Positions 1 to 59,762 of a stretch of DNA of 64,000 nucleotides are shown here, piece after piece (positions within the stretch are counted from its first letter, which is position 1; every line of letters starts with the position of its first letter). Made by a program: the position numbers and the translations under genes. Origin of the DNA: Hyphomonadaceae bacterium (GTDB lineage: Bacteria; Pseudomonadota; Alphaproteobacteria; Caulobacterales; Aquidulcibacteraceae); assembly GCA_009773395.1 (NCBI GenBank), contig WRPI01000004.1, positions 1 to 64,000 of the forward strand. The letters run 5' to 3'. A model generated the notes under the pieces. It was not told the DNA's origin. It ran no database searches and saw nothing but the letters and a program-made list of their open reading frames with translations.

Positions 1-1
1 T

Positions 2-1087
2 CCTTCTCCGCCACCACCGCCACCACCTCCACCACCACCTCCACCTCCTCCACCACCACCGCCACCACCGCCTCCACCAACCGGGATGGATGGTTATTGG
101 AAACCAAAGAGCGAACAAGCGAACCGCATGGCGCAACAAATGCGGCCGAATTTCACAACGCCAATGAGTAAAGCGACCAGACCTACTATTTTTGGTAATA
201 GAATCGCCAATACGCAGTCTGGTTGCTATAATTATGATTGTTCATATGACGAATGCGACCCAAATGTTGCGCGGATTTCCGGGAATTTATGTTGGCAGGA
301 AACTTACAAGAATTATGGAGCTGACCCCTATACCAAGGGTAGGCGTAATACGTTTTTGAAGACGGCTGAAAATTGTATTTATACTTGGGAATATTGCACA
401 TCTGCACCAATGCCTTCAATTGCGCGAGCTTCATGTGTCGCTGACCCAAATGAAATAGCCTGGAATAATGCGGGCGGTGCCTGGTGTGCGTGGGTTCCCG
501 TTACTAGCTGGACGACTTTTGATCCGACAACTGGGCCCAATATTAATTGCCCAATGCCAATGTTGGGCTTGTCTTCTAATCGTGGGCAAGTGCTTGCTAA
601 TATCAACCGCATGTCACCTGTTGTAGGCGGAACTCATGCTGATGTTGGCCTAAGATGGGGCGCGCGAACTCTGTCGCCGAGGTTGTCTTGGGGGCAGTTT
701 TTTGGAATTACTGGCCGCGAAGCAAGGGCTTGGCGCAGCCGTGACGTCAAAAAAGCGCTAATTCTTATTACTGATGGTGAAAACACACAAGCAAATGATT
801 TCCCAGGATTTTGGGGCTGCAGCGATACACTGGCGCCTGGTTGCACTGGCTCTCCCACTGCTGCGGAATTAAACACCCGCATGCTTGCTTGGTGCAGCAA
901 ACTAAATAATGATTGGGGAGTGGATGTTTATACTGTTGCGGTAAACATAAATAATGCAACTGCAGTAAACCTCTTGGCGCAATGTGCTGGTGACCCTGCG
1001 CGCGCATTTGCTGGTGACGCTTCAGAGCTGCAACGCCAACTTCGCGTCGTTGCCAGCCAATTGTTTGAACTTCATATCAAAGAATAG
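2..1087 (+). CDS. TadG-like / von Willebrand factor A-domain protein, 5'-truncated by window edge, with poly-proline linker
   Basis: Frame of ORF 86..1087 stays open to position 2 and encodes 24 consecutive Pro codons (8-79); downstream VWA-like 'KKALILITDGENTQ' and Cys-rich segment. Confidence 0.7.
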   Translation, partial: PSPPPPPPPPPPPPPPPPPPPPPPPPTGMDGYWKPKSEQANRMAQQMRPNFTTPMSKATRPTIFGNRIANTQSGCYNYDCSYDECDPNVARISGNLCWQETYKNYGADPYTKGRRNTFLKTAENCIYTWEYCTSAPMPSIARASCVADPNEIAWNNAGGAWCAWVPVTSWTTFDPTTGPNINCPMPMLGLSSNRGQVLANINRMSPVVGGTHADVGLRWGARTLSPRLSWGQFFGITGREARAWRSRDVKKALILITDGENTQANDFPGFWGCSDTLAPGCTGSPTAAELNTRMLAWCSKLNNDWGVDVYTVAVNINNATAVNLLAQCAGDPARAFAGDASELQRQLRVVASQLFELHIKE

Positions 1088-17042: not shown

Positions 17043-18497
17043 TTGGGTAAAATCACGAATTTATTTGGTTTTGACAATAGCTATGCGGGGCTACCACAGA
17101 GATTTTTTTCAAAGCAGAATCCTCGCCCCGTTGCTGCACCCAAATTAATAAAATTCAACGCTTCACTTGCAGCCGAATTGGGTTTGCAATTGAATGGCAA
17201 GACAGACGAATATTTGGCACAGTTTTTTTCGGGGAATGAAATTCCAAGCGGCGCAGAACCGATTGCACTAGCCTATGCAGGACATCAATTTGGCGGTTTT
17301 AGTATTTTGGGCGATGGACGCGCGGTTTTATTGGGCGAAATAATTGCCGCAAATGGCACAAGATTTGACATTCAATTAAAAGGATCAGGCCAAACCGCCT
17401 TTTCGCGCGGTGGTGATGGTCGTGCTGGCCTCGGACCAGTTTTACGTGAATATATTATCAGCGAAGCCATGCATGCGCTTGGAGTTCCAACCGCACGCAG
17501 CTTGGCCGCAGTAGTAACTGGCGAGCAAATATATCGCGAAGCGGCAATAGATGGCGCGATTGTTACCCGCGTTGCCGCCAGCCATATAAGGTTTGGCACT
17601 TTTGAATATTTTGCCGCGAAGAACGATTTTGATGGCCTGAAAATAGTGGCCGATTATGCGATTACTCGCCATTATCCAAATATTTCAAAATCCGAAAATC
17701 CATATTTGGAGCTGTTGCGCGAAGTGGCGAAATCGCAAGCATTTTTAGTCGCAAAATGGATGAATATTGGCTTTATTCATGGCGTTATGAATACCGATAA
17801 TATGTTGATTTCAGGCGAAACCATCGACTATGGCCCTTGCGCTTTCATGGATAATTACGACCCGAAAACTGTTTATAGTTCAATAGATCGACATGGGCGT
17901 TACCGGTTTGAAAACCAGCCAATCATTGCGCAGTGGAATCTGGCAAGACTGGCCGAAGCATTACTGCCGTTGATAGACGCTGATGTCGTCAAAGCCGTAA
18001 AAGCCTGCGAAGAAATAATCGCCGAATTTCCTACGATTTATCAAGAAAACTGCCTAGAAAATATGCAGGCAAAACTAGGGCTGGCGTTAAATGAAGATGG
18101 CGATTTGGCTTTGGCGCAAGAGTTTTTAGACATTTTGCATACCAATCAACTCGATTACACCAATAGTTTTCGACAATTATTGGATTTTGCAAAAGGTGAA
18201 ATCGTTCCGCGAGAATTTGAGCAATGGTCCAAAAAATGGCAAATTCGCCGCACCAAAGAAGTCAATAATCCAGAAGAAATGTCGCGACTAATCCAGGAAA
18301 ATAATCCAGCTTTCATTCCGCGCAATCACTTGGTTGAGGAAGCCATTGTCGCGGCCAGCCAAAATGCAAATTTTGCGCCTTTTGAGGAACTAATTAGCGT
18401 TTTGGCCAATCCATATGCCGACACAAGCGGGAGCGAGCATTACCGCACCCCGCCGCGCACAGATCAAATCGTCACAGCCACTTTTTGCGGAACATAG
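17043..18497 (+). CDS. selO: protein adenylyltransferase SelO/YdiU
   Basis: YAGHQFGGFSILGDGRAVLLGE, SRGGDGRAGLGPVLREY, ends TFCGT; TTG start. Confidence 0.92.
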   Translation: MGKITNLFGFDNSYAGLPQRFFSKQNPRPVAAPKLIKFNASLAAELGLQLNGKTDEYLAQFFSGNEIPSGAEPIALAYAGHQFGGFSILGDGRAVLLGEIIAANGTRFDIQLKGSGQTAFSRGGDGRAGLGPVLREYIISEAMHALGVPTARSLAAVVTGEQIYREAAIDGAIVTRVAASHIRFGTFEYFAAKNDFDGLKIVADYAITRHYPNISKSENPYLELLREVAKSQAFLVAKWMNIGFIHGVMNTDNMLISGETIDYGPCAFMDNYDPKTVYSSIDRHGRYRFENQPIIAQWNLARLAEALLPLIDADVVKAVKACEEIIAEFPTIYQENCLENMQAKLGLALNEDGDLALAQEFLDILHTNQLDYTNSFRQLLDFAKGEIVPREFEQWSKKWQIRRTKEVNNPEEMSRLIQENNPAFIPRNHLVEEAIVAASQNANFAPFEELISVLANPYADTSGSEHYRTPPRTDQIVTATFCGT

Positions 18498-18578
18498 CGC
18501 ATCGGTCGCTCAGGTGAAAAATAATCACTTTCAATCGAAACATAATTTTGGTTTGCGAGAGGAAAGTCAAGTGGTTTA

Positions 18579-18765
18579 GGAATGGTTTATGGCTAGACAT
18601 GTCTCGCCAAAACCATTCATCAAGTGTGTTATGTGCCCTAGGTTTTTGTCAAGTCCTCGCGCCAAAGCGCGACCGCGAAGCGGCTTCGGGACTTGACAAA
18701 AACCTAGGGCACTAAGGCATAATAACCGAATGGACTCAAGGCAGACTTGCCCTTGAGACCATTCC
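18579..18765 (+). repeat. Dispersed three-hairpin repeat, family 1, copy A
   Basis: Terminal GGAATGGT/ACCATTCC; hairpin 18579-18618; 24-bp perfect inverted repeat 18633-18656/18689-18712 with two inner mini-hairpins; hairpin 18728-18764; homologous to the reverse complement of 42319-42504. Confidence 0.92.
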
Positions 18766-18918
18766 AAAGCAAATTTCTTTGTGCAGCATGGACTATAAAG
18801 TGAATGCGACGCATTAGCACCACAATTTGTTTGCCATGCAAGAAACGGAACATCAACACCAAGCACAATCTGCATTAAACAATTCCAATTGAACGTCTGA
18901 TTCTTTGGAGCCTCGCGT

Positions 18919-19851
18919 CTAGCCCAATGCCGCCATAAGCTCTGGCACGGCAGTTTTATAATCCTGCACCAAACCATAATCAGCAATCGCAAAAATTGGT
19001 GCGTCGGGATCTTTGTTGATTGCCACAATGACTTTTGAATCCTTCATGCCTGCCAAATGCTGAATTGCACCCGAAATGCCAATAGCGACATAAAGTTCGG
19101 GGGCGACGACTTTGCCAGTTTGACCGACTTGGAAATCATTGGGGGCATAGCCAGCATCAACTGCGGCGCGCGAAGCGCCAATTGCAGCGCCCAATTTATC
19201 TGCCAAAGGCACAATTACTGCGTCAAATTCTTCAGCCGAACCAAGCGCACGACCGCCCGATACCACCCGTTTTGCGCCTTGGAGTTCTGGCCTGTCTGAT
19301 TTGACCATGGATTCCGAAACAAATGTCGCCGCATGACCCGAATCAACTGCTGTGATTGCTTCAATGCTTGCAGACCCGCTATTATCCGCTGCCTTAAACG
19401 CAGTTGAGCGGACAGTTATCACATTTTTGGCATCCATTGATTCCAAAGTTTCCAAGGCATTGCCGGCATAAATTGGCCGCACAAATGATTTGGTTGACAC
19501 AACTTCGATAATGTCTGAAATTAAAGCGCAATCAAGTTTTGCGGCAATTCTCGGCGCAGCATTTTTACCAGCAGCCGAGGCCAAAAACAAAATCGCTTCG
19601 TAATTTGCTGCCAAAGGCAGAATGGTTGCTTCAATATCTTCGGCAATTTGCTTGCCTAATCCCGCAGATTGCGCAGTTAGAACTTTTGAAACGCCCGATA
19701 TTTTGGCGGCTGCAGCAGCAATTGCACCAATATTTGCGCCCGCAACCAAAACATGAACTTCAGAAGAAATCATTGACGCGGCACTAACAGCCTTGTTGGT
19801 AGCGTCTTTTAAAACCGCTTCGTCATGGTCAGCATAAACTAGAACAGCCAT
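18919..19851 (-). CDS. etfA: electron transfer flavoprotein subunit alpha
   Basis: GISGAIQHLAGMKDSKVIVAINKDPDAPIF. Confidence 0.97.
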   Translation of the reverse strand: MAVLVYADHDEAVLKDATNKAVSAASMISSEVHVLVAGANIGAIAAAAAKISGVSKVLTAQSAGLGKQIAEDIEATILPLAANYEAILFLASAAGKNAAPRIAAKLDCALISDIIEVVSTKSFVRPIYAGNALETLESMDAKNVITVRSTAFKAADNSGSASIEAITAVDSGHAATFVSESMVKSDRPELQGAKRVVSGGRALGSAEEFDAVIVPLADKLGAAIGASRAAVDAGYAPNDFQVGQTGKVVAPELYVAIGISGAIQHLAGMKDSKVIVAINKDPDAPIFAIADYGLVQDYKTAVPELMAALG

Positions 19852-21854: not shown

Positions 21855-21952
21855 CAAATTGCCACCCTCGCGGCTTCGCCGCTCACTCTGCAATTTGGAT
21901 TCAAGCGGACAAATATTTTTGAAAAGCGTCGTTTTCAAAAATATTTGACATT
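21855..21952 (+). repeat. Dispersed two-hairpin repeat, family 2, copy 1
   Basis: CAAATTGC..GCAATTTG hairpin, 12-nt linker, 16-bp perfect stem with GCGTCG loop (21910-21947); matches the reverse complement of 45074-45160. Confidence 0.88.
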
Positions 21953-21962
21953 TTCTTTTTCT

Positions 21963-25782: not shown

Positions 25783-27225
25783 TCAAATATCGAATTTCAC
25801 ACCTTGGGCAAGTGGCAATACATCTGAATAATTAATGGTTTGGGTTTGCCGCACCATATAGGCTTTCCAAGCATCAGAACCCGATTCTCGCCCGCCGCCA
25901 GTTTCTTTTTCGCCACCAAACGCGCCGCCAATTTCGGCGCCAGAAGTGCCAATATTAACATTGGCGATGCCGCAATCAGAGCCAGTTGCCGATAAGAAGG
26001 TCTCGGCTTCGCGCAAGTCATTAGTGAATATTGCCGAACTTAGGCCCTGTGGAACATCATTATTGATTGCAATCGCTTCATCAAGGCCGTCAGCGTCAAC
26101 TACATATAAAATTGGCGCGAAAGTTTCGGTTGCTGTAATTGCAGTTGCAGATTTCATGTCAATAATTGCTGGCGTAACATAATAACCATTGAAATTGCCG
26201 AGGCGCTCACCGCCATAAACCAATGTGCCGCCCTCGGCTTTGGCTTGATCTATCGCAGTTTGCATGGCCTCATATGCCGCTTGGTCAATCAATGGGCCCA
26301 TCAATATTCCAGCTTGGCGCGGATCGCCGATTGGCACTGATTTATAGGCTTTAACCAAGACTTCCAACAATTTTGCTTTAACCGACGAATGCACAATCAA
26401 GCGTCGCAAAGTCGTGCATCTTTGGCCAGCAGTGCCGACGGCGGCGAAAGTTATGGCTCGCCCTAAAAGCGAAAAATCCGCGCTTGGGCGCACTATCATT
26501 GCGCCATTGCCGCCAAGTTCCAGCAAGCTGCGTTTTAATCCCTCTGCACACGCCCGCGCCACTTGTTTGCCCATACGGGTCGAGCCAGTTGCTGAAACTA
26601 GCCGCACTTTTTCGTGGGCAACCATTGCCGCGCCGACATCGGCAAGACCTTGAATTGTCGCAAACAAATCAGCGGGCGCGTCAGTGCCAAAACGCGAAGC
26701 GGCTTCTTCGAGTGATTCTTGAACGACTTCTGCGCATAAAGGGGTTTTTTCCGAAGGCTTCCAAATAATGCTATTGCCGCAAATAAGCGCCAAAGTTGCA
26801 TTCCAAGCATAAACCGCCACTGGAAAATTAAATGCCGAAATAATGCCGACGACGCCAAGCGGCTTCCAGCGTTCCAGTAAATGGTGTTCAACCCGTTCAG
26901 ATTGAATAGTAAGGCCATGCAATTGGCGCGAAAGCCCCACTGCAAAATCGCAAATATCAATCATCTCTTGAACTTCACCCAAAGCTTCAGAAGTGATTTT
27001 CCCTGCTTCAAGAGAGACCATATCGGCGATTTCTTGTTTGCGGGCGCGCAAAACTTCACCCCATATGCGAACAAGTTCACCGCGTCTTGGGGCCGGCACT
27101 TTACGCCATTTCAAATGCGCCAAATGTGCGTTTTCACATATAGAATCAATGTCACCCAGAGGTGTGGCATTGACCTGCCCTAAAATTGCGCCATCGATTG
27201 GCGACTTTGAAGTGATGGCGTTCAT
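25783..27225 (-). CDS. aldehyde dehydrogenase (AmaB/ALDH7-like)
   Basis: [54 protein letters not shown]-type C-terminus. Confidence 0.88.
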   Translation of the reverse strand: [480 protein letters not shown]

Positions 27226-42318: not shown

Positions 42319-42504
42319 GGAACGGTCTTAAGGACAGGTTTGCCTTAAGCCCATTCACCTATTATCCCTTCGCGCCCTAGGCTTTTGTCAAGTCCCGAAG
42401 CCGCTTTGCGGTCGCGCTTTGCGCGAGGACTTGACAAAATCCTAGGGCGCCAAACAAACTTAATGAATGGTTTTGGAAAAGCACGATTTTCCATAAACCA
42501 TTCC
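42319..42504 (-). repeat. Dispersed three-hairpin repeat, family 1, copy B (inverted relative to copy A)
   Basis: 24-bp inverted repeat 42372-42395/42427-42450 (one mismatch) with flanking hairpins; reverse complement aligns along the length of 18579-18765. Confidence 0.92.
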
Positions 42505-42653
42505 AAAGCAATTTTCTTCTTTGCAAATATGCATCAAAGATAATTCATCTTGAACATACGTAGCTCTGCTGCTGCAAGTTTATCGATGCGGTGGGGAAAG
42601 GTGCATCAAACTTAGGCTTGGCAACGTAAATCATAGGCGATACTTTCAATTCA

Positions 42654-44884: not shown

Positions 44885-45073
44885 CAGATAGGCATTTTCT
44901 GCGAAGAATGTTTAGTATGGGTTTTGGCTGTGAAACTTAATACCTTCCACTTGATTACATTTAATAAGTTTCCACAAAATTTCTTCGTTCCTTGTTAGAT
45001 TTTGGAGTATCACCCCTCCTTCACTTTGTGACCCCTCCCTCAAGCGAAGGAGCTAAGACCAAAACAAAAATGT

Positions 45074-45160
45074 CAAAAATTTCTAAAAACGACGCTTTTT
45101 AGAAATTTTTGTCCGATTTTTCCCAAATTGCTAAGTGAGCGAAGCGAAGGCGGCAATTTG
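45074..45160 (-). repeat. Dispersed two-hairpin repeat, family 2, copy 2
   Basis: 16-bp perfect stem CAAAAATTTCTAAAAA/TTTTTAGAAATTTTTG with CGACGC loop (GCGTCG on minus strand), 12-nt linker, CAAATTGC/GCAATTTG hairpin. Confidence 0.88.
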
Positions 45161-59599: not shown

Positions 59600-59762
59600 T
59601 AGGTCACAGACTCATTAAAAAGGGCGAGAAAGCCGTCAAAAGGGCAAAATAGTGGGGGTAAAGATTACGAAAAGAGGGTTTTTCCCCTCTTTGAGTAAGA
59701 TTTGCCCTCAATATGAAGCCATTTTGGCGGATTTTCGCACTTTTTAATGAGTCTGTGACCTA
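59600..59762. repeat. MITE-like palindromic element, family 3 (full copy)
   Basis: 23-bp perfect terminal inverted repeats TAGGTCACAGACTCATTAAAAAG/CTTTTTAATGAGTCTGTGACCTA; degenerate symmetry inward to central AAAGAGGG-TTTTTC-CCCTCTTT-type hairpin. Confidence 0.85.

What the first reader, a model, noticed from the sequence alone, without database searches (positions are those of the whole stretch)
18579..18765. Novel-looking ~187-bp three-hairpin repeat with compensatory base changes
Copy A has terminal GGAATGGT/ACCATTCC, an outer hairpin (GGAATGGTTTATGG..CCAAAACCATTC), a central 24-bp perfect stem GTGCCCTAGGTTTTTGTCAAGTCC whose 32-nt 'loop' folds into two mini-hairpins (TCGCGC-CAAA-GCGCGA and CGAAG-CGG-CTTCG), and a third hairpin GAATGGaCTCAAGG..CCTTGAGaCCATTC. 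Against copy B, stem changes are compensated: T:A to C:G at stem position 2, and CTCAAGG/CCTTGAG to CTTAAGG/CCTTAAG. The architecture is being maintained while the sequence drifts. It could be a mobile intergenic mosaic element (like RIME/REP elements in other alphaproteobacteria) or a structured RNA/cruciform.
Basis: partly seen in the sequence, partly recalled or inferred. Interest (0 to 1): 0.75.

Follow-up and report, generated by a model that had tools for sequence, protein, structure and literature searches.

The report
Flip-flop palindromic DNA repeat family
This is one of about 30 copies of a small, apparently mobile DNA repeat whose central hairpin carries a cap of tiny hairpins that occurs in both orientations ("flip" and "flop") in three bacterial lineages, with a promoter-like motif fixed in a stem whose other letters are free to change as long as they pair.

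Summary
The 187-bp unit at 18579-18765 folds as described and has 29 full-length copies plus several partial ones in this 2.6-Mb genome. Across 28 aligned copies 95.8% of stem cells pair; one pair uses all four Watson-Crick types. Here the unit is the core of a ~413-bp element (18495-18907) whose TA-ended inverted repeats often supply the stop codon of a neighbouring gene.

Covariance models found the same layout in all nine tested genomes of another genus of the family, and its central and third hairpins as multicopy repeats in a further family of the order; none was found in four congeners. Across lineages stems are rewritten, but GTCAAG/CTTGAC at the top of the central stem and an RAYAAT-like hexamer just beyond it are kept, at a spacing typical of each lineage. 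This resembles an alphaproteobacterial sigma-70 promoter.

The mini-hairpin cap occurs in both orientations at similar frequency. Mismatch statistics in hairpins 1 and 2 fit DNA rather than RNA. Replication template switching, known to homogenise arms and invert spacers, explains both the covariation and the flips; a structured RNA is not needed, except perhaps for hairpin 3. Mobility, promoter activity and the mobilising enzyme are inferred.

The parts
18495..18907 (+). Copy A of the long (~413 bp) element, between convergent selO and etfA
   Evidence: Flank alignment of 30 copies and end detection; the right end is degenerate in this copy
18495..18514 (+). Left terminal inverted repeat TAGCGCATCGGTCGCTCAGG; its TAG is the stop codon of selO
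   Evidence: SelO ends at the same residues (TFCGT, then stop) in four congeners
18881..18907 (-). Right terminal inverted repeat (degenerate)
18579..18765 (+). Core unit with three hairpins (H1, H2, H3), the part shared with other genera
18580..18618 (+). H1, outer hairpin
18633..18712 (+). H2, central T-shaped palindrome with perfect 24-bp arms
18648..18653 (+). GTCAAG, conserved top of the left arm
18692..18697 (+). CTTGAC, conserved top of the right arm; -35-like
18718..18723 (+). CATAAT, -10-like hexamer 19 nt after TTGACA, beyond the foot of H2
18728..18764 (+). H3, third hairpin; the predicted transcript would start about here
42319..42504 (-). Copy B, core unit
42549..42568 (-). Terminal-repeat-like end of copy B (CAGAGCTACGTATGTTCAAG)
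17043..18497 (+). selO (protein adenylyltransferase SelO family), left neighbour
   Evidence: PF02696, E = 5e-115
18919..19851 (-). etfA-like gene, right neighbour
   Evidence: ORF; relatives found by protein search; name by recognition

Best explanation
A dispersed, non-coding palindromic element of the MITE/REP broad class whose central hairpin is a DNA palindrome rather than an RNA fold. Shown: (1) many copies in both strand orientations in this genome, inside a longer element whose TAGAGC-type inverted ends begin with TA and often coincide with a stop codon; (2) the same layout with rewritten but still paired stems in other genera; (3) GTCAAG/CTTGAC kept at the top of the central stem and an RAYAAT-like hexamer kept beyond its foot, at lineage-typical spacing; (4) the mini-hairpin cap present in both orientations at similar frequency. 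Inferred: replication template switching between the long arms keeps them complementary (the 'compensatory' changes) and flips the cap; CTTGAC-N15-19-RAYAAT is a sigma-70-type promoter that fires outward, with its start at H3, which would explain why two hexamers and arm length are kept while arm letters drift; copies were spread by an enzyme acting in trans that was not found.
For: 29 full copies and homologous units elsewhere. Arm complementarity with all four pair types at one position; arms differing from copy to copy inside one f5 genome yet pairing. Balanced G.T/A.C mismatches in H1 and H2. Cap orientation 9:8 and 6:5 in G000, 19:29 in g6, 3:7 in f5 for the main types; no phylogenetic signal of orientation on the element tree (16 changes, shuffled mean 14.7); opposite caps at what appears to be one shared site in two g6 species. 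Template switching is documented to homogenise arms and invert spacers (PMC8604942). CTTGAC-N17-CTATAT is a used alphaproteobacterial sigma-70 consensus (PMC2873474); spacing here 18-19, 16 and mostly 15 nt by lineage, and the mirror side matches TATAAT less well. 13 of 21 recognisable element ends are gene stop codons against 2.6% of nearby TAGs, and the genes checked are mostly full length.
Against: No empty site or target duplication was seen directly; no IS630-type or Y1 transposase was found in the genome. The -10 hexamer departs from CTATAT and spacings of 15 and 19 are at the edge of the usual range; a plain consensus scan does not list this promoter in copy A because its spacing is 19. 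Recombination between copies could also mix cap orientations. The shared-site pair has rearranged DNA beside the units.
Confidence: 0.55

Rival explanations
1. Single-stranded DNA promoter or priming site. When the strand is single-stranded, the long stem offers RNA polymerase a double-stranded -35 and spacer with the -10 left open at the stem foot, as in Frpo/ssi promoters of conjugative plasmids, so that RNA or a primer is made from ssDNA.
For: In DNA folds the -35 is 99-100% paired, the spacer 76-90% paired and the -10 46-70% unpaired. This would explain why the arms must pair while their letters are free. Frpo is described as a folded strand that mimics double-stranded promoter DNA (PMC11541004).
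Against: No link to a plasmid, phage or conjugative element. In f5 the -10 is partly paired. Arm pairing is also explained by template switching.
Confidence: 0.13
2. Recognition hairpin of a transposase or site-specific recombinase: the enzyme binds GTCAAG/CTTGAC, cuts near the RAYAAT hexamer and inverts the cap between the arms.
For: The hexamers are invariant while the rest of the stem turns over; both cap orientations occur.
Against: No Y1 or DDE_3 transposase in the genome; other recombinase families were not searched.
Confidence: 0.15
3. Structured RNA or bidirectional terminator acting at gene ends, with hairpins kept by selection on the transcript.
For: Covariation; 15 convergent, 14 tandem and 1 divergent gene contexts; H3 tolerates G.U but not A.C in G000.
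Against: Few G.U pairs and balanced mismatch types in H1 and H2, a cap found in either orientation, no Rfam match, no T-tract after the hairpins in copy A. The gene-end bias also follows from insertion being tolerated there and is usual for REPs (PMC3733652).
Confidence: 0.15

Closest known systems
Bacterial MITEs with TA ends (Correia/NEMIS, RUP; PMC2229807)
   Same: Short, non-coding, terminal inverted repeats, TA at both ends, intergenic, many copies
   Different: Those named are mostly under 200 bp with one stem loop; this one is ~413 bp with a three-hairpin core shared across genera, and no partner transposase was found
CIR repeats of Caulobacter and Brucella (PMC2229807)
   Same: Alphaproteobacterial intergenic repeat with TA at the termini; the ~105-bp two-armed repeats in this genome look CIR-like by layout
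   Different: CIRs are ~110 bp, two arms and a linker, GANTC in a terminal loop; this unit has three hairpins and is part of a ~413-bp element
REP/BIME, GTAG and CGTC families (PMC3733652)
   Same: Palindromic, at gene 3' ends, element ends that supply TAG stop codons
   Different: REPs are 20-40 bp with 8-9 bp stems in the CGTC families; no GTAG or CGTC tag at the stem foot was noted here; no Y1 transposase in the genome
Frpo/ssi single-strand promoters (PMC11541004)
   Same: Paired -35 and spacer with a -10 near the stem foot in the folded single strand
   Different: Chromosomal, many copies, no conjugative context; activity untested
Parvovirus-type terminal palindromes with flip/flop (from memory)
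   Same: Long stem capped by small hairpins, cap found in both orientations
   Different: Internal chromosomal repeat, no known Rep-type enzyme, not a relative
RIME of Rhizobium
   Same: Intergenic palindromic repeat of an alphaproteobacterium
   Different: No sequence comparison was made

Membership tests
IS630/Tc1-type MITE | Terminal inverted repeats | tested here: met
   TAG[AC]GC...GTTCAAG ends on both sides in many copies, degenerate in others
IS630/Tc1-type MITE | TA target duplication | tested here: inconclusive
   TA at both ends of well-preserved copies but no empty site seen
IS630/Tc1-type MITE | Partner transposase with matching ends | tested here: not met
   No PF13358 match in the genome or eight relatives; other transposase families were not searched; genome 99.9% complete
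REP (GTAG/CGTC) | Associated Y1/RAYT transposase | tested here: not met
   No PF01797 match in the genome
REP (GTAG/CGTC) | 20-40 bp palindrome with an unpaired GTAG or CGTC tag | tested here: not met
   Unit is 187 bp with three hairpins and begins GGAATGG; definition from PMC3733652
CIR | ~110 bp, two arms and a linker, GANTC in a terminal loop | tested here: not met
   Three hairpins, 187 bp core in a ~413-bp element; definition from PMC2229807
Structured RNA family in Rfam | Match to a curated covariance model | tested here: not met
   No match in the window other than a tRNA, none in seven related loci
Frpo/ssi single-strand promoter | Folded strand presenting paired -35 and spacer with an open -10 | tested here: inconclusive
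   Seen in predicted folds, less clearly in f5
Frpo/ssi single-strand promoter | Transcription from ssDNA, leading region of a conjugative element | not testable with these tools
   No plasmid match for a g6 copy; activity needs biochemistry
RIME | Sequence similarity to published RIME copies | not tested
   No RIME sequence was fetched

The most novel reading that the evidence does not exclude
An unnamed, order-wide family of chromosomal mobile palindromes that act as single-stranded-DNA promoters or priming sites: a stem of lineage-typical length and nearly free sequence holds a paired -35 and an open -10 at its foot, capped by a mini-hairpin cluster that flips continually.
Probability: 0.13. 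Interest if true: 0.88.

Novelty: new variant of a known kind. Interest (0 to 1): 0.6.

Why it matters
It separates two causes of covariation that are easily confused: selection on an RNA fold, and DNA template switching that homogenises palindrome arms. It offers a natural system with dozens of copies per genome in which spacer inversion can be counted, so the rate and enzymes of template switching at palindromes become measurable. If the embedded CTTGAC-N-RAYAAT is active, these repeats scatter promoters at gene ends, often antisense to a neighbour; if it works on single strands, it would be a chromosomal multicopy element of a type I do not know from the literature.

Tried and rejected
Exact-pattern scan of GTDB genomes for the G000 stem: 0 hits; stems differ between lineages. 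blastn in 40 relatives: own genome only, so covariance models were needed. Phage collection with copy A and plasmid collection with a g6 copy: no match. Transposase search by DDE_3 and Y1 families: none in the genome. Search for an autonomous element among listed matching ends: only short elements found, but the list of ends was cut. Empty site at selO-etfA: not available, gene order differs in the two congeners whose contigs continue past selO. A class-wide search with R3 under strict filters found one outside hit, G543. A bidirectional promoter was not favoured because the mirror side matches -10 less well (the g6 figure there is diluted by reversed readings). That f5 arms are copied from flanking DNA was considered and set aside because arm length is nearly constant and the hexamer follows.

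Full report
WHAT IS THERE. As single-stranded DNA it folds at -66.3 kcal/mol, z = -14.4 against dinucleotide shuffles. blastn in the window's own genome (G000, 2.63 Mb, 17 contigs) finds about 35 places, full-length ones mostly 73-89% identical, largely on contigs C7 and C8. A covariance model built from 28 copies (A3, R1) finds 29 full-length copies and partial ones.

THE ELEMENT IS LARGER HERE. Aligning the flanks of 30 copies shows conserved DNA on both sides, ending in inverted repeats of the form TAG[A/C]GC-N5-A-N-GTTCAAG. Copy A spans 18495-18907 (413 bp) between the convergent genes selO and etfA. In many copies the TAG of an end is the stop codon of the adjacent gene: 13 of 21 recognisable ends terminate an ORF of at least 120 codons, against 2.6% of other nearby TAG triplets. 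These are mostly not truncations: SelO ends at the same residues in four congeners, and ArgE, RsmB and RarD match family models to near their ends; the ApbC-like gene at L024 may lack a short tail. Contexts are 15 convergent, 14 tandem and 1 divergent. REP ends supplying TAG stops are already known (PMC3733652), so this part is not new. A second, ~163-bp family with the same ends has about 25 copies, and ~105-bp two-armed repeats with similar ends also occur.

COVARIATION AND ITS MEANING. On the structure I named, 95.8% of 1524 cells pair; 11 pairs change on both sides, with 64 such cells against 18.6 in shuffles, and sliding the partners by one column drops pairing to about 51%. The structure was derived from copy A, so the slide comparison leans in its favour. 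One pair near the cap uses all four Watson-Crick types. In hairpins 1 and 2, G.T and A.C mismatches are both rare (10 and 21 cells; 6 and 10 distinct sites), as expected for DNA; an RNA would tolerate G.U preferentially. Hairpin 3 shows 15 G.U and no A.C cells, at 8 distinct sites (Fisher p = 0.006 on sites). The g6 alignment does not clearly repeat that bias, so it is suggestive only.

THE CAP FLIPS. The 32-nt cap exists in reversed form in other copies (for example L012, L014, L015, L025), and a shorter type is also found both ways. Counts are 9:8 and 6:5 in G000. On a tree of the rest of the element, four-state labels (type and orientation) need 16 changes against 14.7 for shuffled labels, so they carry no phylogenetic signal. 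In genus g6 the main cap type is 19:29 and in family f5 3:7. At what appears to be one shared site in G018 and G041 the unit lies in the same direction but the cap is reversed; flanks match at about 80% over 830 and 700 bp. Independent insertion there is not strictly excluded, because the DNA beside the units is rearranged. A second such case (G044 and G043) matches on one side only.

WIDER FAMILY. R1 hits seven genomes of genus g6 over its whole length and none of four congeners. R2, built from g6 units, finds eight in each of nine g6 genomes (only eight candidates per genome were scored) and finds G000 at 4e-18. With sensitive filters R3 (H2 + H3) gives 84 matches in G043, 39 in G022, 47 in G110, 22 in G190, 67 in G000, 5 in G008 and none in G001-G005; these counts include both strands, so copy numbers are lower. 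A single hit in another family of the class (G543) is weaker. Across 17 units from these lineages the invariant columns are essentially GTCAAG, CTTGAC and A..AT of the hexamer. In f5 the outer 18-20 nt of the arms differ strongly from copy to copy inside one genome yet still pair.

A PROMOTER-LIKE READING. CTTGAC-N17-CTATAT is the sigma-70 consensus used for S. meliloti (PMC2873474). Here CTTGAC is followed by RAYAAT-like hexamers at 18-19 nt in G000, 16 in g6 and mostly 15 in f5. The predicted start falls at hairpin 3. This would explain why two hexamers and arm length are kept while arm letters are free. In single-stranded folds the -35 and spacer are paired and the -10 is largely open, less so in f5, the layout described for Frpo/ssi promoters (PMC11541004). 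That resemblance is a lead, not a test.

MECHANISM. Template switching between inverted-repeat arms is documented to homogenise arms and invert spacers (PMC8604942). It predicts long near-perfect arms, block changes in both arms together (as in L040 and L041), balanced mismatch types and mixed cap orientations, all of which are seen. It does not predict the invariant hexamers, which need sequence-specific recognition: RNA polymerase in my preferred reading, a transposase or recombinase in the rival. No DDE_3 or Y1 transposase was found in the genome.

LIMITS. ORFs were called mechanically. Infernal E-values are rough. Cells and sites are not phylogenetically independent. g6 units used for counts come partly from draft genomes and may include near-duplicates. 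Promoter activity, mobility and the mobilising enzyme are inferred.

Noticed in passing
L055:1799-1962 and about 25 other places in G000: A ~163-bp MITE-like family with the same TAGAGC-type ends as copy A; the variable bases near the two ends change together within each copy.
   Followed up: partly
L162:478-581, L163:484-587, L168, L180:2551-2655: Short (~105 bp) two-armed repeats with similar ends and a linker, resembling the CIR layout.
   Followed up: no
window 21880-21960 and 45061-45141: Another inverted pair of dispersed repeats, 81% alike, one just after a tRNA-Gly gene.
   Followed up: no
window 59600-59762: A 163-bp element with 31-bp terminal inverted repeats starting TAGGTCACAGACTCATTAAAAAG.
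   Followed up: no
window 26677-26706: A 30-nt stretch 77% like the mini-hairpin cap of copy A, without the rest of the unit being noted.
   Followed up: no
G000 contigs C7 and C8: Nearly all copies of the three-hairpin element lie on two of 17 contigs; whether this is a chromosome region was not tested.
   Followed up: no
L188-L206, L244-L283 (genus g6): g6 units are often next to hairpin repeats containing GTCATCCCCGCC and lie near contig ends, so assemblies break there.
   Followed up: no
window 1-100: Contig C8 begins in a CCACC-rich low-complexity repeat.
   Followed up: no
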